From a virus, in the IMG/VR virus record IMGVR_UViG_3300032092_000015, positions 1 to 64,000 of that record: 64,000 nt of DNA; one strand, given 5' to 3'. Under the pieces are notes generated by a model. That model saw only the letters and a list, made by a program, of their open reading frames with translations, made no database searches and had not been told where the DNA came from. This document shows, one piece after another, positions 11,917 through 38,054 of this stretch. How positions within the stretch are numbered: position 1 is the first letter of the stretch; each line of letters starts with the position of its first letter. The position numbers were made by a program, and so were the translations under genes.

Positions 11917-12282
11917 TTAAAGCTCTTCTAATCCGGCTTCAGCGTCAGCAACATCGGCTTCTGCATCGGCACCGCCTTCTTCTTTTTTCTTATCGTCTTC
12001 TTGATTTTCTTTGTTCTCTTCTTCTTTCATTTCATTGTAAAAAGTCTTTAATTTAGACATTTCTTCAGTTTTGAAAGCGTCTTGACCATAAGTATTAAAG
12101 AAATAATCTTCAAACTCTTGTTCTGTTGCTGAGGCTGCAATTGCACCTAGTGTTTCAGCAGCTTTGATTACCGTGCCGTCTTCTAATGTAACATCTTCTA
12201 CATATACTTTAGAATCTTCTGCTTTTAAAGCTTCTGCTTCGGCAACGAATTCTTCAAATGTTTTAATAATTTTCATTTTCAT
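11917..12282 (-). CDS. Prohead core protein (gp67/gp68 position) with capsid-targeting-like N-terminus
   Basis: 121 residues. It begins with M-K-I-I-K-T-F-E-E-F-V-A-E-A, nearly the T4 capsid-targeting sequence (F-I-A-E, cut after Glu). The last third is strongly acidic with E/D/K runs, like T4 gp67. In T4 genes 67 and 68 lie between portal gene 20 and protease gene 21, exactly where this gene is. It has no promoter of its own and follows the portal gene by 18 bases. A core protein cleaved during head maturation is the likely role. Confidence 0.7.
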   Translation of the reverse strand: MKMKIIKTFEEFVAEAEALKAEDSKVYVEDVTLEDGTVIKAAETLGAIAASATEQEFEDYFFNTYGQDAFKTEEMSKLKTFYNEMKEEENKENQEDDKKKEEGGADAEADVADAEAGLEEL

Positions 12283-20109: not shown

Positions 20110-20549
20110 TAGAACAATCGATTTATTTTTTTACGTTTCAAGACATTTGTGCGATTATCTAGTTCTTGAATTAAATCTTCTTTAAATTTATTACCAAGGG
20201 AAGAATAGAATTTTGTAGGATGAACATTGAAATAATCACATGTTTCGCTAAATAATTCAATAAGTGAATATTTCTTAGCAAGTTCATCAACAATAAATTC
20301 ATAGATTTCATTAATATCTAACTTCTTTAATTTCTTGGTATCATGCATATCGTCTAAATCATTGAAATGCTTGAACCTTGAATTTATAATAGTAGAATGA
20401 ATGTCTCTACGGATCATTTCTAACTCAATCTTCTCGTCTTCTGATCTATCATCAGAAAATTGTTTGGACACTTCGAATGATATTGAACTATTGAGTTCAA
20501 ATTCAGTGCTCTCAAACGTATTATTAAATATTTTATCTTCTTTCTGCAT
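20109..20549 (-). CDS. gp33: Late transcription coactivator, gp33-like
   Basis: 146 residues (T4 gp33 has 112). gp33 bridges RNA polymerase and the gp45 clamp for late transcription. Residues about 80-146 follow T4 gp33: E-F-I-V-D-E-L-A-K-K-Y-S, S-E-T-C-D-Y-F-N-V-H-P-T-K-F and a final helix, against T4 E-K-M-V-E-E-F, F-L-E-E-N-S-I-P-E-T-Q-F. It ends K-I-N-R-L-F; T4 ends T-L-D-F-L-L, the clamp-binding tail. N-terminal 50 residues are acidic. Located between gp47 and gp41 with one-base overlaps. Good but not decisive by eye. Confidence 0.65.
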   Translation of the reverse strand: MQKEDKIFNNTFESTEFELNSSISFEVSKQFSDDRSEDEKIELEMIRRDIHSTIINSRFKHFNDLDDMHDTKKLKKLDINEIYEFIVDELAKKYSLIELFSETCDYFNVHPTKFYSSLGNKFKEDLIQELDNRTNVLKRKKINRLF

Positions 20550-21856
20550 TATAGAGAATGTAAATTTGAGTTTGTAATTTCATCAGTTTCAGTTAAACGC
20601 ATATAATTATAATTGATGTTCAATTTACATTTCATGCCTTTTCCTTCACCATCACGTATTTTTAAAACTTTTAGCCAATATTCATAACTTGCTCTCATTA
20701 TATCATCTTGAATGATACCAAGCATAACATCGGCAGTATGAGATAGACCAGCAGATTCTGCAACATCTCCCATACCAATATCACTAGAATTATATCCACT
20801 TCTCGTGATCTGTGTTGCTGTTACAATTAACCAACCATTGCGAACTCCCATTGCTCGTAAATCTTCAGCAATTTGCTTAATTTTTAAGTACGTATTTTCA
20901 GAGTTTGGATTTCTGTAATTTGCTAAAATGTTAATATAGTCGATTACAATTGCACCTAATTTAATTTTACGTTCTTCTTCAATCTGCTTTAAGTATGCTT
21001 CAATATCTGGTACGGTTGCTTGAGATGTTGGAAATTGTTTGACAAACAGTTGACCAGGAGGAGTTAATCCATCACCAACAGTTTCAAGTTTTCTACGAAT
21101 AAAATCAACGTTCTTTGATTTTTCTTCATATTCATTCATTGGAATTGTTAACAAATTAGAACCAACTCTTCGCATAAATTTATAAGCCGACATTTCCGCA
21201 GTAATGATTGCAGTATTAACTCCCATTTTTACATAGTGCGCTGCATCATTTGCTAAGAAAATAGACTTACCAATGTTTTGTTCTCCAACATAAACTGTTA
21301 AAGTACCAGATTTATCATAACCGCCGCCAAGAATTCGGTCTAAGAAAACGTATGGCGTTGGAAATTTAGATGCTTCATTATGAATATGGTGGTCTGGGTT
21401 AAAGAAATCTAGACCAATATCTGAGTTAAACACTAATGAGTTTCTATCATTAATTAATGTTTTAACTTTAGAAATAATTTGATCTGCATTTTCAGGAGTA
21501 ACATTAGTTGATTTGATATACTCGATCGTGTCAACTAATGTTGTGTCAAAGTTTCTCCATTTGATCCATGCTTCGGCAGTAGATGTTAACCATTCCTCAT
21601 CATATTGTTTTAAATCAGCATCGTAAATTAATTCAACCATATCTGGTTCAATTTTCTTAGATACTTTTTGTGTTAATAATTTCATTTGTTCACAACTCGG
21701 AACTTCATGAAATTTATTATGGAATTTCGTAGCTAAATAATGTAGTGTATCGATTTCTTCTGAAGTATAAAAACCTTTTTTAATAGATTCTAAATACTTT
21801 GGCTTAGATAACGATAATTTAAAGAATATTTTTTCAAAATCTTGTCCGAAATTCAT
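20549..21856 (-). CDS. gp41: Replicative helicase gp41 (DnaB family)
   Basis: 435 residues (T4 475). Hexameric 5'-3' helicase of the replisome. Walker A V-G-E-Q-N-I-G-K-S near 190, Walker B A-I-V-I-D-Y-I-N near 305, and the conserved Q-I-T-R-S near 350. N-terminal helical domain present. Overlaps the gp33-like gene by one base and the upstream small gene by four. Confidence 0.93.
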   Translation of the reverse strand: MNFGQDFEKIFFKLSLSKPKYLESIKKGFYTSEEIDTLHYLATKFHNKFHEVPSCEQMKLLTQKVSKKIEPDMVELIYDADLKQYDEEWLTSTAEAWIKWRNFDTTLVDTIEYIKSTNVTPENADQIISKVKTLINDRNSLVFNSDIGLDFFNPDHHIHNEASKFPTPYVFLDRILGGGYDKSGTLTVYVGEQNIGKSIFLANDAAHYVKMGVNTAIITAEMSAYKFMRRVGSNLLTIPMNEYEEKSKNVDFIRRKLETVGDGLTPPGQLFVKQFPTSQATVPDIEAYLKQIEEERKIKLGAIVIDYINILANYRNPNSENTYLKIKQIAEDLRAMGVRNGWLIVTATQITRSGYNSSDIGMGDVAESAGLSHTADVMLGIIQDDIMRASYEYWLKVLKIRDGEGKGMKCKLNINYNYMRLTETDEITNSNLHSL

Positions 21857-22165: not shown

Positions 22166-23287
22166 TTAATCTTCTGAATCTATTACATCATCGATGTCAA
22201 ATCCTGCGTCATCTCCGGCTGTATTATAATTAAATAATGGTTGGATATGTTTTTCAATTCTTTCTAATACCTGCTGATTAAATACTTTTTCGGTAAAGAA
22301 ATCTTTGTTTGCAACTACTTCGTCCAAGTGCTCGCAAATCCAAGTCTTAGCGGTATCTTTCTTAATTTTTTCTTTGGTTTTAGGATCGATAATTCCTCTC
22401 GTTACTCCACAAATGTCCCATGTAGCGTATTGCTCTAGTCCAACAAATTTATTCATTCCTTTAGTAAAATCTAAATGGAATTTAATTGCAGTTGGTTTGG
22501 CAAAACGATTCTTAGCAGGTTTAGCAGTTACGATAATACCAACTTTTTCTGCTCCATCTTTTAATTGTGCCTTATTTAACATAAGTACAATTGATGCTGC
22601 ATATTCAGGTCCAGTTCCACCACCCGCAATCTGCTGTGGTATAAAGGATTGTGATTGATATGTGTGATTAGTAAATAAGAACGGAATCTTTAAGTCAGCC
22701 AGTGGTGTCATAATGATACGGAAGATTGATTTTAGAACCTTTGATCTAGTCATATCTGCTTTATCTGATCCGGCTGCAGCATCTTCGATTTCTTTTTGAG
22801 TAGCTAAGTTACCAGCAGAATCTAAGACAATCATAATTTTTGGAATTTCTGCTCCGCCTCTTTTAGCCTCTTGCATTTTCTTAGTAATTGAAGTTACCGA
22901 AGTTCTAAACTCTTGTACCGTATTAACAGGTTGATAACTAACTTTAGTCGTATCAATGTTAAATTTCTTCATTAGATCTTTATCAACTGCAGCTTCAGAA
23001 TCATAATAGATCACGCTATAACCCATGTTGATTGCTTCTCGTACAGTATTCAACATTAAGAATGTTTTACCGGTTCCTGAAGGACCAGCTACTGAACAAG
23101 ATCGGTTATTCGGCCATCCACCAAAAAGGCTACCAGAAACACATGCATTTAAATGATAGTTTCCTGTGTCTAGCCATTCAGTTACTTCAGAGAAATCTGA
23201 AGTTTCCATAATGGATCCTAGCGGATTTAATTCTGATAATTCAGCGTTGATATCGTCAAACGTGAATGATGTTATTTTTTTAGCCAT
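22166..23287 (-). CDS. uvsX: RecA-like recombinase UvsX
   Basis: 373 residues from ATG 23287 (T4 391). A longer frame begins at 23338, but ATG 23287 overlaps the stop of the upstream gene as ATGGCTAA, the usual coupling here. Walker A G-P-S-G-T-G-K-T at 68-75, Walker B I-M-I-V-L-D-S-A-G-N-L (T4 V-V-F-I-D-S-L-G-N-L), M-T-R-S-K-V-L-K-S-I-F-R-I and G-G-G-T-G-P-E-Y all align with T4 UvsX. C-terminal acidic tail ends D-S-E-D. Drives strand exchange with UvsY and gp32. Confidence 0.93.
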   Translation of the reverse strand: MAKKITSFTFDDINAELSELNPLGSIMETSDFSEVTEWLDTGNYHLNACVSGSLFGGWPNNRSCSVAGPSGTGKTFLMLNTVREAINMGYSVIYYDSEAAVDKDLMKKFNIDTTKVSYQPVNTVQEFRTSVTSITKKMQEAKRGGAEIPKIMIVLDSAGNLATQKEIEDAAAGSDKADMTRSKVLKSIFRIIMTPLADLKIPFLFTNHTYQSQSFIPQQIAGGGTGPEYAASIVLMLNKAQLKDGAEKVGIIVTAKPAKNRFAKPTAIKFHLDFTKGMNKFVGLEQYATWDICGVTRGIIDPKTKEKIKKDTAKTWICEHLDEVVANKDFFTEKVFNQQVLERIEKHIQPLFNYNTAGDDAGFDIDDVIDSED

Positions 23288-23498
23288 TGTTTTCTGTATT
23301 TTTTGTAATATTTTGTTCAAGATTGTCAAAGAGTTCATGCTCTTTTTCTCTAAGTTCAGATATTTCTTTTATTGCTTCAGATAATTCTTGTTTAAGAATT
23401 TCCATGCGAATTTTTAATGAACCTACTCTAGAATACAAATCTTTATACTTTTGTATAATTTCAATTTGTTCTGGACTTAGTTGTGATATATCAAGCAT
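23280..23498 (-). CDS. Small coiled-coil protein upstream of uvsX
   Basis: 72 residues, almost entirely one charged heptad helix (residues 8-62), Asn-rich end. Coupled on both sides: its ATG overlaps the stop of the upstream 51-residue gene (ATGCTTGA) and its stop overlaps the uvsX start. Function unknown; size and place suggest a recombination accessory factor. Confidence 0.7.
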   Translation of the reverse strand: MLDISQLSPEQIEIIQKYKDLYSRVGSLKIRMEILKQELSEAIKEISELREKEHELFDNLEQNITKNTENNG

Positions 23499-23646
23499 CT
23501 TTTTCTTTTTTGTTTTCTTTTTCAGAATTTATTTTTGCATTTTCAATTTGGAATATAAATTTACGGACGGCCTTGCCTAGTTCCATATCATTTGGTTGAT
23601 TTTTAACCATTGCTTCCAAAATCTGCATTACTGTTAAATGTTCCAT
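23491..23646 (-). CDS. 51-residue protein between polymerase C-part and uvsX
   Basis: A short open frame from ATG 23646 (M-E-H-L-T-V-M-Q-I-L-E) to TGA 23491, one base after the polymerase stop and overlapping the next gene by eight bases. N-terminal half is helical, the last 15 residues are Lys/Glu-rich. Tight coupling on both sides is the main support. No family recognised. Confidence 0.6.
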   Translation of the reverse strand: MEHLTVMQILEAMVKNQPNDMELGKAVRKFIFQIENAKINSEKENKKEKDA

Positions 23647-23647
23647 A

Positions 23648-24844
23648 TTAAAATAATGATGTTGAATAAATTAAGTTACGATTTAATGTTTGAAGACCGA
23701 TAGAATCTAATACTCGATTTAACGGATCAATCATACTTTTTTCAAATTGCACTTCATAATCGATTGGAGGAGCAATTTCATAAGGATGGTCTCCTGGGAA
23801 ATATGCAAACATTTCACAATTTTTATGGTTACAATGATACAATTTAAGTTTTTCACCGTTACCAATTAACTTATACTTATTCTTGTATTTTTGATTATTG
23901 TTTAGTAAATAATTATAGAATCCAGCAGCTTTTACATTTGGTGGACATTTAGAACCATATTGAAATTCGATATGGTCATCTACAATATATTTCTCAATGT
24001 TATTAGTCCTTTTATTAAAAGAAATATCGTCGATGTCGGCCATTTTAAATTCTTTCTTAGTTTTCTTTAGAAAGTTAACAATTTTTGTTAGTGTTTCTGT
24101 TGTTGGCTTTTCTGTAAAAAGAATTTGTAATGCTTCAGTTAATTTTTTACGAATAAAAGTTGGTGTTGAAGATTGAATCGAATCAAATCCGATAACTTTT
24201 ACCTTTTTCAAAGAAGGATATCGCTCATGTGTTTTTAGCTTATCTTCCCATGCAATATCTTGAATATACTTTTTCTTAGCCATCCAAATTCCTGAATACG
24301 CTATTGATTCAAGTTCAAACTGTAAGAAGCTTTCAGTGTTTTTAGAAGATGCATATTTATCTAATGCTTTAACAATATAATCTCTAATTCGTAAATCATA
24401 AATTGTTAAAATAAAAGTTGCGATGTCCATCTTTTCACCAAGCCATTCAATAGAATCATACATTTCTTCAAATTGAACATAATTTGAATCAGTATCAATA
24501 TAAATTACAGCTTCTTTATAAATATTATTTTTTACTTTAATATTTAATTTCTTATGAACTTCCGTATCTTTAATAAAGAATTCTTGGAAATATTTGTTTA
24601 GAATTTTAGCCGAATATAAAATTGCATTTTGGCCTTGTAGTGTAATAGATTCTGCAATATCGATGTTGAAAAAGTGAAACCACTTGTTACCAAAGGCTCC
24701 ATAGATCGAGTTTAGAGTTACTTTAACTGCTTGTTCATACGCAGTAAACTTGGCCGACTCATTGCTAAAATGAGTGGCCAAGATTTCTAACTCGTTTCTA
24801 GTAAGTTGATCTTCAGGTTTATTTAGTAGTTCCTCAATTGTCAT
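23648..24844 (-). CDS. gp43B: DNA polymerase gp43, C-terminal part (split gene)
   Basis: 398 residues holding the rest of a family-B polymerase whose first part is at 28735-30144. Motif B K-V-T-L-N-S-I-Y-G-A-F-G-N at 41-53, motif C Y-I-D-T-D-S at 115-120 with both catalytic Asp, then a thumb region and S-S-T-P-T-F. It ends Y-S-T-S-L-F, the place of the T4 clamp-binding tail L-D-F-L-F. It lacks exonuclease and motif A, which are in the other gene. The frame is open and clean with its own ATG overlapping the gp45 stop, so this is a true split, not a frameshift. Confidence 0.93.
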   Translation of the reverse strand: MTIEELLNKPEDQLTRNELEILATHFSNESAKFTAYEQAVKVTLNSIYGAFGNKWFHFFNIDIAESITLQGQNAILYSAKILNKYFQEFFIKDTEVHKKLNIKVKNNIYKEAVIYIDTDSNYVQFEEMYDSIEWLGEKMDIATFILTIYDLRIRDYIVKALDKYASSKNTESFLQFELESIAYSGIWMAKKKYIQDIAWEDKLKTHERYPSLKKVKVIGFDSIQSSTPTFIRKKLTEALQILFTEKPTTETLTKIVNFLKKTKKEFKMADIDDISFNKRTNNIEKYIVDDHIEFQYGSKCPPNVKAAGFYNYLLNNNQKYKNKYKLIGNGEKLKLYHCNHKNCEMFAYFPGDHPYEIAPPIDYEVQFEKSMIDPLNRVLDSIGLQTLNRNLIYSTSLF

Positions 24845-25596
24845 TAATCAGCGGTTTGGCAAGTTGCAATAGTTAATAGAGTGGCAGATTCAGTTGAACG
24901 AAGCACTACACGGTTTCCAAATACATAAGCTTTATAATCTTCTTTATCCAAGAGATTTAAGTACTTTTTGTAAACTGTAACACTTCCAGCTTCACCTTCA
25001 TAATCAACACTTACTAATTTGTTGTATGATTTACCGCTCATTTTAACACCGCCATCGCCAGCTGTAATTGTGAACGTTTCATCTTTATCAAGATTGAACA
25101 ATGATTTAATACGTCCTGCTTCTACATTGCTTAATTCGAATACAAAATCAGAACCTTCTACATTAAAGATAGATTGTAATTGAGCATCTGTAAGGTCTTT
25201 GTAACCCAATGATGGCTCTGAACAAGATAAGGTAATTTCCAAATCTTCATTAAAGATTTTAAAGCTAGATGCTACTAAATCTTCTTCATTTTCAACAAAT
25301 TCAATTTCGCCTTGAATTGTTTGGTAGTCGAATTGTTTGAAAGCTTCAATTAATTTAGAAGCATCAAAAAATGCAACTTTCATTTCTTTTTCTGGCGTAG
25401 CCTCTGTGATTGTGAAAATTTCACTTGCTGGAAATGCGTTATGTTTAACAGCATCTCTCTGCGGAAGATACGCGGAAGATACAACCTGGAGGTTATCTCC
25501 TTTAATTTTGAAATAGATGAACGAATCAATCAATTTCAACCTGTTTACAAAACCAATAAAATTGGCTTGATCTACTTTGTCAATTTTTAATTTCAT
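24844..25596 (-). CDS. gp45: Sliding clamp gp45
   Basis: 250 residues (T4 228). Trimeric processivity clamp, also the late-transcription activator. The start M-K-L-K-I-D-K, the regular alternation of strands and helices, the central F-T-I-T-A-G-D-G-G-V-K-M-S-G (T4 I-A-I-T-V-K-E-G-K-I-V-I-N-G) and D-Y-E-G support the call. Located next to polymerase, as clamp genes are. Own GAAAC-N17-TATAAT promoter 36 bases upstream. Confidence 0.85.
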   Translation of the reverse strand: MKLKIDKVDQANFIGFVNRLKLIDSFIYFKIKGDNLQVVSSAYLPQRDAVKHNAFPASEIFTITEATPEKEMKVAFFDASKLIEAFKQFDYQTIQGEIEFVENEEDLVASSFKIFNEDLEITLSCSEPSLGYKDLTDAQLQSIFNVEGSDFVFELSNVEAGRIKSLFNLDKDETFTITAGDGGVKMSGKSYNKLVSVDYEGEAGSVTVYKKYLNLLDKEDYKAYVFGNRVVLRSTESATLLTIATCQTAD

Positions 25597-25631
25597 GTGA
25601 TTTAAACTTTTAGAAACATTTGTTATTGATA

Positions 25632-25661
25632 ATTATATTCATAATGTACCTTTTGTTTCAC
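25632..25661 (-). promoter_or_regulatory. GTGAAAC-N17-TATAAT promoter of gp45
   Basis: Minus strand GTGAAAC (complement of 25655-25661), 17 bases, TATAAT (25632-25637), then 35 bases to the gp45 ATG. It lies directly beyond the nrdA terminator. Confidence 0.72.
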
Positions 25662-25662
25662 A

Positions 25663-25694
25663 TAAAAAAGGGCAGGAGTAGCGAATTCCTGCCC
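25663..25694 (-). terminator. Terminator after nrdA
   Basis: Stem GGGCAGGA with its complement and a 9-base loop, followed on the minus strand by TTTTTT. A second small hairpin (GTGGT-cttcaa-ACCAC) lies at 25725-25740 between it and the nrdA stop. The 25697-25754 stretch shows no gene. Confidence 0.85.
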
Positions 25695-25754
25695 AGTATC
25701 CGTGAACTAGTCCCGGTCCTAAGAGTGGTCTTCAAACCACACCTTAAAAATTAT

Positions 25755-27569
25755 TTATCCATCACAACTTAAACAATCAACCATTGCTCTTTGTGCAATA
25801 TCTCCTCTAAGTACTGATTCTGATCTCATATAATAAAGAGTTTTGATACCTTGATTATAGGCTTCTAAATGTACTTGATTGATAAATTTAGGTTCTGCTT
25901 CATTTGGAAATGCTAAGTTTAAAGAAACTGCCTGGTCAACGTATTGTTGTCTAACTCCAGCCTGTTTAACTAATTCCATTTGATTAATTTCTTTGAAAGT
26001 TCTATACGCATCTTTCATTGGAATAAATTCATCTTTATGAACATTTTCTAATTCATTCATTTTATCTTTATGGATTGGGCGGCCTGCTTTTTCATCTAAT
26101 TTTTCACCAACACGAACAAAATATTCATCCATCCAATCTAAACCTTGAACTGATCCGCCATCGGCTAAAATTTGATCCCAAGTTTCTTTGTTATTCTTTT
26201 TGATAAAAGATAAAGCTTTTTCTAAGGTTGGATTTTTACGAATAAAAGTTCCTTTAGCTGTTTGTTCGGTAAATACGTTTGCTGCCCAAGGTTCTACTCC
26301 AGCCGAAACATTACCAGATAATTTAGAGTTAGAAACTGTTGGAGCAATTGCACGTAAATGCGTGTTTCTCATTCCAGTTCCAACGCACCATAAGGGTTCT
26401 CCAAATTCTGTTGCCATATCTCTACTTGCTCTTTCAGACTCTATTTTGATTTGACTAAAAATCTTACGAGTTTCAAATTGCGCAATAAGCGAATCAAATG
26501 GAATATTTCTGTCTTGTAGATAAGTGTGCCATCCTAAAACTCCAAGTCCTAATGCTCTACCTTTTTCAGCTGAACGAACTGAGTTTTCAAATCCTCTCAT
26601 GTATTTTGCTCGACTAATAAATTCAGAAAGAACACCATCTAGAAAATATGTTGACGTATATACTAAATCAGTATCTTTCCATTCATCATATTTTGCAAGG
26701 TTTAATGAGCTTAAACAACAAACAAATGAGTGATTCTCATCAGTGTGTAAAGTAATTTCTGAACAAATGTTGGTCATATAAACTTTTAAACCATTTTGTT
26801 TGTACGCTTCAGGGTTTGCTCTATTAACATTTCCTTTGTACATAATATATGGCTCTCCAGTTGCTTTACGTTTTCTAAGAACCGCAGCCCAGCGTTTTCT
26901 TGACTCTTTGTCTCCAGCTTCTAATTTAGCCATAAAACTATCAGAAACCACAGCACATTGGTGCATATTTAAGGATTGACGATTAACATCTCCCTTTGGT
27001 TCTCTAATTTCTAACCATTCCCAAAAATCACCATGTTCAATATCGATGTTAACTGATGCTGCTCCTCTTCTAACAGACCCTTGGTTGGTTGCTAAAATAG
27101 TAGAATCATAAATCTTAATAAATGGAACTACTCCATCTGATGTACCATTTTGAGAAATGCTAGAACCTGCTGGACGAATTTGATTTACTCCAATTCCAAC
27201 TCCACCTCCATGTTTTGCAAGTAGCATCATCTCTAAATTCTTAGAACCAATATCTTGAATTGAGTCGGCTACATCAATTCCAAAACATGAAATTGGCAAT
27301 CCTCTTTCTGTACCAGTATTTGATAAAACTGGAGTAGCTAAGTTTAACCAACCTTTCCAAATATAATCGAAGAATTTGCTTGCCAATTCTGGCTTTCCTA
27401 ATCTTTTTGCAACGCTAGTTGAAACTCTCCAATAAGCATCTTTAGGTGTTTCACCCTTTAACAAATATCCTTTTGATATTGTTTTAACATAAATTTCTGT
27501 ATTACCCCAAACTGGGAAATCTACTCCTAGTTCCCAGTTCAGTTGTTCTCCGTGATTAATTTGATCCAT
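25755..27569 (-). CDS. nrdA: Ribonucleotide reductase large subunit NrdA (class Ia)
   Basis: 604 residues, shorter than T4 NrdA (754) because the N-terminal ATP-cone is absent. Active-site residues: C95 in P-I-S-C-F-G and the C284/C285 pair as the redox cysteines, and N267-x-C269-x-E271 as the radical site. Y-Y-M-R-S-E-S near 580 is the radical-transfer tyrosine pair, and C-L-S-C at the C-terminus is the swinging reductant pair. Reduces ribonucleoside diphosphates for phage DNA synthesis. Without the cone it should escape dATP inhibition through that domain. Follows nrdB by 30 bases. Confidence 0.95.
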   Translation of the reverse strand: MDQINHGEQLNWELGVDFPVWGNTEIYVKTISKGYLLKGETPKDAYWRVSTSVAKRLGKPELASKFFDYIWKGWLNLATPVLSNTGTERGLPISCFGIDVADSIQDIGSKNLEMMLLAKHGGGVGIGVNQIRPAGSSISQNGTSDGVVPFIKIYDSTILATNQGSVRRGAASVNIDIEHGDFWEWLEIREPKGDVNRQSLNMHQCAVVSDSFMAKLEAGDKESRKRWAAVLRKRKATGEPYIMYKGNVNRANPEAYKQNGLKVYMTNICSEITLHTDENHSFVCCLSSLNLAKYDEWKDTDLVYTSTYFLDGVLSEFISRAKYMRGFENSVRSAEKGRALGLGVLGWHTYLQDRNIPFDSLIAQFETRKIFSQIKIESERASRDMATEFGEPLWCVGTGMRNTHLRAIAPTVSNSKLSGNVSAGVEPWAANVFTEQTAKGTFIRKNPTLEKALSFIKKNNKETWDQILADGGSVQGLDWMDEYFVRVGEKLDEKAGRPIHKDKMNELENVHKDEFIPMKDAYRTFKEINQMELVKQAGVRQQYVDQAVSLNLAFPNEAEPKFINQVHLEAYNQGIKTLYYMRSESVLRGDIAQRAMVDCLSCDG

Positions 27570-27599
27570 GTAAAATATAATTGTATTGTTTATTTATTC

Positions 27600-28616
27600 T
27601 TATGAAAACATGTCATCCGCGTCCCAATTCTCATCTTCTCCTGCCTTTGAGTAGTCAGTTGGTCGAATTGCAAAAAAGTCAGTGTGTGTATGTCCTCCAG
27701 TTAAGTGATAGAACCAATCTAATTGACTAGCCATTGCTTCACTATAATGGAAAATGCTTTCATATCCTAATTCATTAAGTTTTTCGTTTGCCCTTTTCTT
27801 AATAAATTCTTTAAGGTCTGCTGCTTGCATGTTTTCAAGGTCTCCCATTTCAAACATTTTATCAATGAATTGGAATTCCATTTCAACCATTAATTTTGCA
27901 GCTTCTTCTACTTGAGATTGAACTGCACCTTTTAGTTCAGGATATTCTTCGCACATGTGTCGAAATAACTGACAACCCATTTTTGAGTGTAATGATTCAT
28001 CTCTAACTGACCATTTCATTTGCTGACCAATACCTTTAAGTAGGTTGCGCATCTGGAATGAATATAAAACTGCAAATGATGAATATAGTGAAACGCCTTC
28101 AGCAAAAGCAGAGAAGATCGCAAGTGATCTGGCTACTTCCTTTCTAGCAGAAGAATCGTGTTGTAAATCTAAATGATTATAATCATTACTAGTTTCTAAT
28201 AAGAATTCAAACTTTTGAGAAATTGATGGTTCTTTAAGAAATGCAGCAAAATCTTCTAATCCTAAAGTTTCATTTAAATATGAGTAAGCAACAGCATGCA
28301 CTGTTTCATTCGAACCAAAAGCCATCGCCATTTGTCTAATCTCATGTTTTGGAAACCATTTAGTAACCATGCCAGTCCAATAATCTGAAACTGCACATTC
28401 GGTTTGTGCAAATCCTAATAATATATTACCAACAAGATTCTTTTCAGATGGTGTTAAGTTTTCATTCCAATCTTTAAGATCGCCTTGCATTGAAATTTCA
28501 GTATGTAACCAATGAGCTTGCATTACTGGAAGCCATCCTTCAGTATAGTACATTGGATATTCAAAGGGTTTATACTCTACGCGTTCAACAAATAATGATG
28601 ATTTTGAATTTTCCAT
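27600..28616 (-). CDS. nrdB: Ribonucleotide reductase small subunit NrdB
   Basis: 338 residues. Di-iron/tyrosyl-radical partner of NrdA. Ligand motifs visible: E-C-A-V-S-D-Y (about 112), N-E-T-V-H-A-V-A-Y-S-Y (about 140), E-G-V-S-L-Y-S-S-F (about 193) and R-D-E-S-L-H (about 225). Acidic C-terminus D-D-M-F-S can bind NrdA. Sits between polymerase halves, upstream of nrdA. Confidence 0.95.
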   Translation of the reverse strand: MENSKSSLFVERVEYKPFEYPMYYTEGWLPVMQAHWLHTEISMQGDLKDWNENLTPSEKNLVGNILLGFAQTECAVSDYWTGMVTKWFPKHEIRQMAMAFGSNETVHAVAYSYLNETLGLEDFAAFLKEPSISQKFEFLLETSNDYNHLDLQHDSSARKEVARSLAIFSAFAEGVSLYSSFAVLYSFQMRNLLKGIGQQMKWSVRDESLHSKMGCQLFRHMCEEYPELKGAVQSQVEEAAKLMVEMEFQFIDKMFEMGDLENMQAADLKEFIKKRANEKLNELGYESIFHYSEAMASQLDWFYHLTGGHTHTDFFAIRPTDYSKAGEDENWDADDMFS

Positions 28617-28652
28617 TTTTTTAATTTTTTTTGCTTTTAATTTAGACTAAAA

Positions 28653-28677
28653 TGGCCTAGATAGTTATTCCAGGCCA
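28653..28677 (-). other. Hairpin in nrdB leader
   Basis: Inverted repeat TGGCCT/AGGCCA with a 13-base loop, followed on the minus strand by TTTTAG, lying between the AATATATAAA box and the nrdB start. Could be an attenuator or weak terminator. Confidence 0.35.
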
Positions 28678-28694
28678 AGTGTTGTAGGGATTTC

Positions 28695-28704
28695 TTTATA
28701 TATT
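28695..28704 (-). promoter_or_regulatory. Candidate promoter before nrdB
   Basis: AATATATAAA on the minus strand, 79 bases before the nrdB ATG. Identical to the motif before virion genes, although nrdB would not be expected to be late-only. Confidence 0.4.
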
Positions 28705-28734
28705 AAAGTCATCTTCCTAGACTCATACCGGGAA

Positions 28735-30144
28735 TTAATCTTTTTTCTTAGCTAATAACTTTTTATAGTAATCTGCTTTTTCGTATAACTGGTATGATGT
28801 TGATTTGTATTGTTTACGTTTTGAATATAAATCAGAAAGAATCATTTTTAACATTGAATCTTCTTTATTATAAACAACACCATTCTCGCAAACAATAACA
28901 TTTTTATCTTTTCGACGCTCTTCAATTTTCGAAGCAGGTACCTTTTCAATAAAGGCATCTGGAGAAATATTAAACTGTCGCATGATTGATGGATATAGAG
29001 ATGCAAAGTCAAATGCACTTACTCCAGCATAGAAACCAACTTTAGGTTCTTTAACAAAAGCTCCGGCATATTGTGTTTCTTTTTTACCATCTTCACGTTG
29101 TTCTGAACCGATTCTAAATCCAGATTCTGCCATCTTACGAGCAATTAATGCTTCAGTTACAGCAACTGGAGAAGCAGCTTTATAAATTGGCATTCTAGTA
29201 ATATTAGCAAGAGTTAAAAGTACTTCCATTGATTTTAACTTTTTATCAATATAATATACTAGAACGGAGTCAACTACGTTATAATAAACATACTTTTTAA
29301 AATCGTCTCGATATAAATCTTGTAAGCCTCCATTGTATTTAATTTTATTTAAATTTAATACTTGGCCAGAAACATAATCAAGTGAATTTGATTCTTTAAC
29401 TTTTACAGATTTATCATACTTATCATAAAGTTGCATGTAGTCAAGAATACCCATGTGTAATGGTCTTGAATCAGTTGGATCAACTGCTTTTGTAATTGCA
29501 GATTCAGCAATGTCAATTTGTAAATGCTTACAACGATTTACAATATATTGCCAGTCATAATTAATAAAATTCCAGCCGGTCATCATTGGAAACTTAGGCA
29601 TAAATTTATACAAAAATGTATAAACCATGTCATACTCGGTTTTAAACTTAATATATTGAAAAGTCCAATCAGTGTCTAATGATTTAAAATATTCATTAGT
29701 ATCTTTTTCAATTTGAGAGATTTGTTCTGAACTTAAATCTTCTAAACCTAATACGATTGCCTTTTTATTTGGAGTAATAATTGAAAAAGTAAGGATTCTT
29801 GATTTTGCTTCTTCAGCTCTTGGAAAACCGTCAACAATCTCAGTTTCAATGTCGACAAAATAAGTTTTTGGCATATTGTATGCGTAAATTTCTTCTTTGT
29901 CTTTTTCAGAAAGACTGTCCATGAAATATACTAGCGAAAACTTATTAAACTGACGGGACGGCTGCAACTTAATTGCTCTGCCGTCCCAGTTTTTAAATTT
30001 TTGGCTTGCTTCGCGCTCTTTTTGGTCACAAACAAACCAGTTTTGATACTGATTAATTGGGTATCTCTTAAATGCAACTTCACCTTCTTTATTGTAAAAA
30101 GAGATCATTACCTCTTTATCTCTTTGCTCAATATCTAATAACAT
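28735..30144 (-). CDS. gp43A: DNA polymerase gp43, N-terminal part (split gene)
   Basis: 469 residues with the uracil-sensing N-terminal and 3'-5' exonuclease domains and the first part of the palm. Exo I F-V-D-I-E at D98/E100, Exo II W-N-F-I-N-Y-D near 203, Exo III Y-N-V-V-D near 287, and motif A D-F-A-S-L-Y-P-S-I near 375. It ends after S-K-R-K-Q-Y-K, the first fingers helix, with a Lys-rich tail; motifs B and C are in the gene at 23648-24844, 3.9 kb away beyond nrdB, nrdA and gp45. Overlaps the gp56-like gene by one base. Confidence 0.93.
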   Translation of the reverse strand: MLLDIEQRDKEVMISFYNKEGEVAFKRYPINQYQNWFVCDQKEREASQKFKNWDGRAIKLQPSRQFNKFSLVYFMDSLSEKDKEEIYAYNMPKTYFVDIETEIVDGFPRAEEAKSRILTFSIITPNKKAIVLGLEDLSSEQISQIEKDTNEYFKSLDTDWTFQYIKFKTEYDMVYTFLYKFMPKFPMMTGWNFINYDWQYIVNRCKHLQIDIAESAITKAVDPTDSRPLHMGILDYMQLYDKYDKSVKVKESNSLDYVSGQVLNLNKIKYNGGLQDLYRDDFKKYVYYNVVDSVLVYYIDKKLKSMEVLLTLANITRMPIYKAASPVAVTEALIARKMAESGFRIGSEQREDGKKETQYAGAFVKEPKVGFYAGVSAFDFASLYPSIMRQFNISPDAFIEKVPASKIEERRKDKNVIVCENGVVYNKEDSMLKMILSDLYSKRKQYKSTSYQLYEKADYYKKLLAKKKD

Positions 30145-30611
30145 TAATATCCTCGTTTTTGGCGTTGCTTATTCTCTTCTGCTTTTGCAAAGTAGTAATT
30201 GTATGCTGTTTTTGCATCTAATCCAATAGATGCTGCATAATTTATAAAGAAGTGCAGAATATCTACCCATTCCATATAAAGCTCTTTGCGATCGTTTTCT
30301 GAAAGATCGGAAATTTTCAGGTTTTCATACTTTGTATGAGCTGTTTTCCAATACTTCCATACTGCATTACCATCTCCATCTTTAATTCCACCAAGTGCAT
30401 CGGTCATTTCATGAATTTCATCAAGCACTGCGTGAGTGTTAACATGCCAGAAATTCATAATATCTCTGATTGTCATGTTATCAAAATCAAAGCCATAAGT
30501 TTTTTCTTGCATTTCTTTTTGGTGGTTCATTATATCCGCCAAGTGTGTTGTAGATTTATCATAGAAGTCATTTACTTCTAAATCTTTACATTCATTATCA
30601 ATATTTGCCAT
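30144..30611 (-). CDS. gp56: dCTPase/dUTPase, gp56-like (all-alpha NTP pyrophosphatase)
   Basis: 155 residues (T4 171). Hydrolyses dUTP and possibly dCTP to monophosphates. Metal-binding D-E-I-H-E near 75, the V-W-K-Y-W-K segment, L-S-E-N-D-R-K-E, E-W-V-D-I-L-H-F-F near 115, and the C-terminal E-E-N-K-Q-R-Q-K-R-G-Y, which matches T4 A-E-N-F-A-R-Q-D-R-G-Y. In T4 it excludes unmodified dCTP; no dCMP hydroxymethylase is in this window, so a plain dUTPase role is equally possible. Confidence 0.9.
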   Translation of the reverse strand: MANIDNECKDLEVNDFYDKSTTHLADIMNHQKEMQEKTYGFDFDNMTIRDIMNFWHVNTHAVLDEIHEMTDALGGIKDGDGNAVWKYWKTAHTKYENLKISDLSENDRKELYMEWVDILHFFINYAASIGLDAKTAYNYYFAKAEENKQRQKRGY

Positions 30612-36932: not shown

Positions 36933-37478
36933 TTATTTAGCATCTATTGATAAGAAAACGCTGTTTCTAATTTCAATATTATTATAACCAACTTGCTTGT
37001 CCTGATCACCGACGATTGTAGTAGCTGATACGAAGAGTGCAGTGTTTGTCATTCCACCAAGCTTACGATCAAATTTGCTAGCGTCAACATCATCAGCAAA
37101 ACCAATATTAATTACAAAATCACTTTTTAAACTAACAAAAAGTTCTGTACCTGTTGGTGTATTTAATCTATTAACAACATCGGCAATCCATTGTGAATTT
37201 GATAAAGTTGCTGTAATATAAACTATAGCTTCTTTATCTTTTACAACTTTCATTACTTCTTGTTCAATGATTTTAGAACCATCGCGATCTGCCCAGTATG
37301 ACCAAATTTCATTTAGTTCAGCTAAAGTTGCATCAGCATCACCTTCATATTTAATCTTTTCTACTTCTTTCTTAAAGGCAAATAGAACTTTTCCAATAAT
37401 ACCTTTAGCTCCGTAGATTCCAGTTAACTGGTATGCTTTTTCAGCAATAAAGTTTTCGTATAGCTTAATGTGTTTCAT
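36933..37478 (-). CDS. Putative packaged head protein with capsid-targeting-like N-terminus (1)
   Basis: 181 residues. Begins M-K-H-I-K-L-Y-E-N-F-I-A-E-K, containing the exact F-I-A-E of T4 internal proteins, where gp21 cuts after Glu. The rest is an alpha/beta domain without recognised catalytic motifs. First of a run of similar genes with 5-base gaps. Confidence 0.7.
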   Translation of the reverse strand: MKHIKLYENFIAEKAYQLTGIYGAKGIIGKVLFAFKKEVEKIKYEGDADATLAELNEIWSYWADRDGSKIIEQEVMKVVKDKEAIVYITATLSNSQWIADVVNRLNTPTGTELFVSLKSDFVINIGFADDVDASKFDRKLGGMTNTALFVSATTIVGDQDKQVGYNNIEIRNSVFLSIDAK

Positions 37479-37484
37479 ATCTTA

Positions 37485-38054
37485 TTAATATTCGTTGGCA
37501 CGACACCATTCAACGGCATCTTTAACTGTTTTTAGTTCTTGGTCATATCCACTTAAATCGTAAATTCCGAGAATAGTTTTGCCATCGTCATTTAAATAGA
37601 ATGAAAATTGCTCTAGTTCTCCATCATGTCTAGGTGATTGCGCTTCTAATCCATTTTCAAATTTCACAACATGTGGAAACTCTTCATCTGCATCATATCC
37701 CCAAGATAATGATTCTACGTTTTTAGCCTTAGATAATTCTTTAAACAATTTTACTAAAATTGCTGGTTTTTCTGGCTTAGAAGCTTCATTAATAAAGTTT
37801 TCATTAGCAAAATCTGGTTTAACAATAACCCAATATGGGCCTCTGCTAGTACCAACAATTCTATTTTGATCAGTATCTAATGCTCCCATTTTCACATCAC
37901 CAATAACAGATTCTTTATTGTCTTTGATCCATTTTGAGCATGATGTTCCATTTTGAAATTCAATAACTGGATTTCCGTCAACAGTAACATCAAGTACTTT
38001 ATATTGTTTCCTAGCTTCATTAATGAAACTTTCAAATAGTTTTACGTGTTTCAT
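37485..38054 (-). CDS. Putative packaged head protein with capsid-targeting-like N-terminus (2)
   Basis: 189 residues from ATG 38054 (an in-frame TTG at 38063 is rejected because it overlaps the upstream stop). Begins M-K-H-V-K-L-F-E-S-F-I-N-E-A. A second copy, E-N-F-I-N-E-A, occurs near residue 90, dividing it into two halves of similar size that could be separated by the prohead protease. The C-terminal half contains E-D-E-L-type and W-G-Y-D-A-D-E segments. Function unknown. Confidence 0.7.
   Translation of the reverse strand: MKHVKLFESFINEARKQYKVLDVTVDGNPVIEFQNGTSCSKWIKDNKESVIGDVKMGALDTDQNRIVGTSRGPYWVIVKPDFANENFINEASKPEKPAILVKLFKELSKAKNVESLSWGYDADEEFPHVVKFENGLEAQSPRHDGELEQFSFYLNDDGKTILGIYDLSGYDQELKTVKDAVEWCRANEY

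What the first reader, a model, noticed from the sequence alone, without database searches (positions are those of the whole stretch)
23648..30144. DNA polymerase gp43 is split in two genes separated by nrdB, nrdA and gp45
Exonuclease motifs and motif A are in 28735-30144; motifs B and C are in 23648-24844. The break is in the fingers, between the first long helix and the K-x3-N-S-x-Y-G helix. Split gene 43 is known in some Aeromonas T4-like phages (44RR, 25), attributed to mobile elements; here three ordinary genes stand between the parts and no mobile element or intein remains. Both frames are open with their own starts.
Basis: partly seen in the sequence, partly recalled or inferred. Interest (0 to 1): 0.8.

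Follow-up and report, generated by a model that had tools for sequence, protein, structure and literature searches.

The report
Phage DNA polymerase made as two proteins
A T4-type phage and its many relatives make their DNA-copying enzyme as two separate proteins, cut at the tip of the enzyme's 'fingers' with other replication genes moved into the gap; the same cut has arisen at least four times, once visibly next to a selfish DNA-cutting gene.

Summary
gp43 (family B polymerase) is encoded by two ORFs (N part 28735-30144, C part 23648-24844, minus strand), separated by nrdB, nrdA and a sliding clamp. It is not an assembly error: 107 relative loci have the order N-nrdB-nrdA-clamp-C, and none is fused. 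Exonuclease and polymerase catalytic residues are all kept and are shared between the chains. Both genes are under strong purifying selection, and the halves and the clamp co-evolve.

It is not unique. The same fingers-tip split occurs in Sphingomonas PAU, Chryseobacterium MA9V-1, Tenacibaculum PTm1/pT24, Prevotella Lak and uncultured megaphages. PHROGs already has separate families for the halves. Aeromonas 44RR is cut at the same place. The tree needs at least four independent splits.

Origin: homing-endonuclease genes sit at the break in LR756500, Lak-A1 and contig L302. L302's near-identical relative L280 has an intact gene there. Best reading: an old homing-endonuclease insertion split the gene; the element was lost and other genes entered the gap; the chains re-assemble without splicing.

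Assembly itself was not tested here. The kind is known (phage 25 halves co-purify and are active). New here are the clade-wide fixation, the clamp in the gap and the empty/occupied site pair.

The parts
28735..30144 (-). gp43 N part (469 aa): N-terminal and exonuclease domains, palm motif A, first fingers helix
   Evidence: (phrog_2062); residues D114/E116/D222/D327/D411/R482/K486 (RB69 numbering) kept
23648..24844 (-). gp43 C part (398 aa): second fingers helix with motif B (K560, N564, Y567), motif C (D621, D623), thumb, C-terminal tail
   Evidence: (phrog_1918)
24844..25596 (-). sliding clamp (PCNA fold, gp45 equivalent), directly upstream of the C part; its stop codon overlaps the C part's ATG
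   Evidence: AF2 pLDDT 88 and Foldseek to PCNA; no sequence match; start context
25755..27569 (-). nrdA, ribonucleotide reductase large subunit
   Evidence: PF02867 6.5e-87
27600..28616 (-). nrdB, ribonucleotide reductase small subunit
   Evidence: PF00268 4.5e-59
30144..30611 (-). nucleotide pyrophosphohydrolase-like gene, stop overlaps the N part's ATG
   Evidence: phrog_173 2.3e-12
22166..23338 (-). uvsX-like recombinase, downstream of the C part (as in cyanophages: 43, then uvsX)
   Evidence: phrog_97 8.5e-61; context
20549..21856 (-). DnaB/gp41-like helicase
   Evidence: phrog_19 1.2e-57

Best explanation
A T4-type replicative polymerase (gp43) is made as two chains that assemble without covalent joining. 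The break lies at the solvent-exposed tip of the fingers hairpin, so each chain keeps one fingers helix. The catalytic aspartates (motif A in the N chain, motif C in the C chain) and the dNTP-binding residues (R482/K486 in the N chain, K560 in the C chain) are divided, so polymerase activity needs both chains. Shown here: positions, conservation, selection, co-evolution, and recurrence of the break. Inferred: assembly and activity, by analogy with phage 25. Origin (inferred, about 0.65): a freestanding homing endonuclease inserted at the fingers tip in an ancestor, was later lost in this lineage, and the gap was occupied by the clamp gene and then by nrdB-nrdA.
For: Catalytic and fingers residues are kept across both halves in 11 N halves and 6 C halves of this clade (the one exception is K486, which is Q in PAU and MA9V-1). 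dN/dS is about 0.04-0.10 for most comparisons of both halves. Pairwise distances of N and C correlate at 0.95, and N with clamp at 0.95, against 0.55 for N with uvsX and 0.5 for N with nrdAB, in 43 non-identical loci. The order is conserved in 107 loci. The break is at the same structural place in all split members and in 44RR. Homing-endonuclease genes lie directly after the N half in LR756500 (start overlaps the N stop; phrog_3339 8e-134) and in Lak-A1 (starts 9 bases after the stop; 5e-23). Contig L302 is split by a NUMOD3 homing-endonuclease gene exactly at the fingers tip, while L280, 97-99% identical in DNA, is intact. Literature: 43A/43B of phage 25 co-purify and have polymerase activity (PMC2988022, citing Petrov 2010).
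Against: No direct evidence of assembly or activity; co-folding could not be run. No endonuclease remains in the window, and those seen in relatives could have invaded an already split gene, the same caveat as for phage 25 (PMC2988022). The one intact clade member, MaF61, falls inside the split clade on a long branch (p-AU 0.03-0.18), so the order of events in the clade is not settled. L302's C part carries an in-frame stop just after motif B, so its function is doubtful.
Confidence: 0.88

Rival explanations
1. Assembly chimera or rearranged contig: the gene is really contiguous.
For: The window is a metagenomic virus record and no reads could be examined.
Against: 107 loci from many metagenomes have the same order; isolate genomes PAU, MA9V-1, PTm1 and pT24 are split at the same place.
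Confidence: 0.01
2. The parts are joined after expression by a split intein or a trans-spliced intron.
For: Split inteins occur nearby in relatives: after DTDS (motif C) in PTm1, Lak-A1 and LR756500, and in nrdA of L061 and LR756500.
Against: The N part ends 91 residues after motif A and the C part has only 44 residues before NSxYG, all attributable to the fingers helices, with no room for intein fragments. No Rfam intron at E<=1 in 23400-30300. In Lak-A1 and some megaphages the parts lie more than 100 kb apart.
Confidence: 0.02
3. The N part works mainly as a free-standing 3'-5' exonuclease and the C part is a remnant or has another role.
For: The exonuclease domain can stand alone (a 388-residue T4 fragment is solved as 1noy).
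Against: The C part keeps K560, N564, Y567, D621 and D623, has dN/dS mostly 0.04-0.07 and co-evolves with the N part. No other PolB is in the own record.
Confidence: 0.04
4. The split arose by genome rearrangement alone (translocation of the 5' part past the clamp gene), without a mobile element.
For: The window has no mobile remnant. In T4-like phages the clamp gene lies upstream of 43, and in cyanophages uvsX lies downstream, so moving the N part past the clamp would give the present order.
Against: A homing endonuclease sits exactly at the break in two deep relatives and in a very recent independent split.
Confidence: 0.3

Closest known systems
Split gene 43 (43A/43B) of Aeromonas phages 44RR and 25
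   Same: T4-type PolB cut at the fingers tip (44RR: RB69 ~512/514); separate chains; phage 25 chains co-purify and are active (PMC2988022).
   Different: In 44RR the parts are adjacent (about 50 bases apart); in phage 25 a seg endonuclease is associated with the split (PMC2988022). Here nrdB, nrdA and a clamp lie between. 44RR lies on a separate branch with intact relatives, so the split is independent.
Split polymerase genes of phages PAU, MA9V-1, PTm1, pT24, Lak and uncultured megaphages (PHROGs 2062 and 1918)
   Same: Same clade (100/100), same break; a clamp-like gene lies just before the C part in PAU, MA9V-1 and pT24, and before it with an endonuclease gene between in PTm1.
   Different: No nrdAB between in PAU, MA9V-1, PTm1 or pT24. 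Halves dispersed in Lak and some megaphages. PTm1, Lak-A1 and LR756500 have a second cut at motif C with a split intein.
Split PolB of Methanothermobacter thermautotrophicus and Nanoarchaeum equitans
   Same: Family B polymerase encoded by two genes; M. thermautotrophicus uses two polypeptides (PMC7776575, PMC4104785).
   Different: Cellular PolB3 lineage, attributed to inteins; N. equitans parts carry inteins. Break position not compared here.
Rhodothermus phage RM378 polymerase
   Same: T4-related; polymerase ORF too short to hold a full gp43 exonuclease part.
   Different: The polymerase domain lies in a single ORF (PF00136 positions 41-378), so the cut is elsewhere.

Membership tests
T4-type gp43 (family B DNA polymerase) | Exonuclease acidic residues D114, E116, D222, D327 | tested here: met
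T4-type gp43 (family B DNA polymerase) | Motifs A, B, C with D411, K560, N564, Y567, D623 | tested here: met
   over two chains
T4-type gp43 (family B DNA polymerase) | Single polypeptide | tested here: not met
T4-type gp43 (family B DNA polymerase) | C-terminal clamp-binding tail | tested here: inconclusive
   Conserved C-terminal end finishing in an invariant L-F; binding not tested
Aeromonas-type split gp43 (43A/43B) | Break at the fingers tip | tested here: met
Aeromonas-type split gp43 (43A/43B) | Parts adjacent, or separated only by an untranslated spacer or endonuclease gene | tested here: not met
   Three genes between
Aeromonas-type split gp43 (43A/43B) | The two chains bind and polymerise | not testable with these tools
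   Single-chain folding only; bench test needed
Aeromonas-type split gp43 (43A/43B) | Shared descent of the split | tested here: not met
   Separate origin on the tree
Split-intein ('fractured') gene | Intein fragments at the two ends of the break | tested here: not met
Group I intron-interrupted gene | Intron RNA at the break | tested here: not met
Sliding clamp (gp45/PCNA) for 24844-25596 | Two-domain clamp fold | tested here: met

The most novel reading that the evidence does not exclude
The fixed split is useful rather than merely tolerated. The N chain may also act alone as a proofreading or degrading exonuclease, and assembly with the clamp-coupled C chain may switch on polymerisation, so that replication is controlled by chain assembly.
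Probability: 0.1. Interest if true: 0.75.

Novelty: new variant of a known kind. Interest (0 to 1): 0.5.

Why it matters
A replicative polymerase that works as two chains cut through the moving fingers domain is a strong test of how modular the family B fold is. Finding the same cut fixed across a large phage clade and arising at least four times marks the fingers tip as a recurrent break site. The intact/occupied pair L280/L302 lets the homing-endonuclease origin be tested directly. It also warns annotators that 'missing' gp43 in jumbo phages of this clade is often two ORFs far apart.

Tried and rejected
Assembly artefact: rejected on 107 loci and several isolates. Intron: no Rfam hit. Intein at the fingers break: no fragments. 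A second full PolB: none in the own record or in relatives' records of 166-256 kb. Naming the clamp by sequence failed and was solved by fold. AlphaFold of the C part alone gave pLDDT 52 and was not searched; this may mean that it needs its partner or only that the alignment was shallow. Papers: ten searches were made; none of the papers found states the split as a clade trait of these phages, but the library holds open-licence papers only, and Petrov 2010 itself was not readable. In the 37-row tree the RB69 row was cut short by a pattern error (19% of columns filled); Eco005 and 44RR carry that branch.

Full report
1. What is there. On the minus strand of the window the gene order is pyrophosphohydrolase-like gene (30144-30611), gp43 N part (28735-30144, 469 aa), nrdB, nrdA, clamp (24844-25596), gp43 C part (23648-24844, 398 aa), two small ORFs, uvsX (22166-23338), a small ORF and gp41-like helicase (20549-21856). 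Pfam PF00136 is divided between the two ORFs: positions 21-137 and 154-452. RB69 gp43 residues 66-490 align to the N part and 545-819 to the C part. No other PolB place is found in the 95 kb record. That record is probably a fragment, since several close relatives are 160-256 kb, but those also show only the two places.

2. The gene between. Neither Pfam, PHROGs nor a PDB profile search names 24844-25596. AlphaFold on 19 relatives gives pLDDT 88, and Foldseek returns PCNA clamps from E 6e-12. It is a PCNA-superfamily sliding clamp. Profile comparison with T4-type gp45 finds nothing, so 'gp45' is a functional label.

3. Not an artefact. In 107 relative loci the order N-nrdB-nrdA-clamp-C recurs, with 3.6-7.6 kb between the halves and no fused gene; some contigs appear twice in that count because they were fetched with both halves. 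A separate contig is 99.8-100% identical. Isolates carry the same split: PAU gp105/gp110, MA9V-1 ORF135/138, PTm1 ORF236/239/241, pT24 165/168. In Lak-A1 and the megaphages LR756502 and LR756504 the halves are about 130-280 kb apart and on opposite strands. PHROGs holds one family per half (phrog_2062 and phrog_1918).

4. Where the cut is. Aligned to RB69, all split members end after the first fingers helix and restart before the helix with K560-x3-N564-S-x-Y567-G. 44RR is cut at RB69 ~512/514, the same turn. This is the exposed tip of the fingers hairpin (own knowledge of RB69 gp43 structures).

5. Function. Exonuclease D114/E116/D222/D327, polymerase D411 (N chain) and D623 (C chain), R482/K486 (N chain; K486 is Q in PAU and MA9V-1) and K560/N564/Y567 (C chain) are kept. 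dN/dS is mostly 0.04-0.10 in both halves. Protein distances of N and C correlate at 0.95 (0 of 999 permutations as high), and each with the clamp at 0.94-0.95, but only 0.55-0.56 with uvsX and 0.39-0.51 with nrdAB, which lies between them. Both halves start with TAATG overlaps, N with the pyrophosphohydrolase gene and C with the clamp, so clamp and C half are probably translated together. I infer a two-chain polymerase whose active site is shared. The experimental precedent is phage 25 (PMC2988022).

6. How often. Of 106 further contigs, 80 have intact genes, all nearest to cyanophage P-SSM2. The 16 nearest to the split clade all have an N half only; their C halves were not found in the stretches held. 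Three more, nearest to P-SSM2, are also cut at the fingers tip with the C half just downstream. On a 37-row tree at least five changes between intact and split are forced by well-supported branches: 44RR, the window's clade, L302, L308, and MaF61, which is intact inside or beside the clade. Holding the window's clade together without MaF61 is not rejected in that tree (p-AU 0.134) nor in the concatenated tree (0.18), but is weakly rejected by the C half alone (0.03). MaF61's long branch makes its place unsure.

7. How it arose. L302 and L280 are 97-99% identical in DNA. L280 has an intact fingers. In L302 about 850 bases with a NUMOD3 homing-endonuclease gene (phrog_314, 6e-34) replace about 15 bases at the tip, and the ends of the two parts are recoded. 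L308 has only a spacer of about 270 bases, like 44RR's shorter one. In the window's clade, LR756500 and Lak-A1 have a DUF7487/phrog_3339 homing-endonuclease gene directly after the N half, and PTm1 has one just before its C half. The window has none of this family. I read these as stages: invasion, loss of the element, then other genes entering. The alternative, that endonucleases entered an already split gene, is not excluded.

8. The gap as a site of exchange. The nrdB-nrdA pair between the halves exists in two versions, 76-96% versus 28-30% (nrdB) or 37-40% (nrdA) identical to the window's, while flanking genes stay at 54-99%. In L061 and LR756500 nrdA carries split inteins, with endonuclease genes beside it.

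9. Verdict. Real, functional by all sequence evidence, and a known kind. New here are the clade-wide fixation, the clamp lodged between the halves, the count of independent splits and the empty/occupied pair. Assembly and activity remain to be shown.

Noticed in passing
window 25755-28616; relatives such as L008, L015, L017, L047, L049: The nrdB-nrdA pair between the polymerase halves has been replaced by a distant version (28-30% / 37-40% identity) in about half of the relatives while both flanks are conserved.
   Followed up: partly
L165:11522-14328, L191:1405-2208, L161:28721-29491: In PTm1, Lak-A1 and LR756500 the C half is cut again right after DTDS (motif C) by a split intein, so the polymerase comes from three genes.
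   Followed up: partly
window 11917-12276, 36933-37478, 37485-38054; also L060, L061, L049, L017: Several ORFs share an N-terminus like MKHIKLFExFxNEA, resembling the capsid-targeting leader of T4 internal head proteins (from memory); they also accumulate between nrdA and the clamp in relatives.
   Followed up: no
L302:4499-5351 versus L280:7116-7132: Near-identical contigs with and without a homing-endonuclease insertion in the gp43 fingers tip; L302's C part also has an in-frame stop just after motif B.
   Followed up: partly
L164:7944-10928: Flavobacterium phage MaF61 has an intact 994-aa gp43 on a long branch within the otherwise split clade: an ancestral survivor or a re-fusion.
   Followed up: partly
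L161:18416-20359: Homing-endonuclease gene (DUF7487 plus MTES_1575 nuclease) whose ATG overlaps the stop of the gp43 N half in LR756500.
   Followed up: yes
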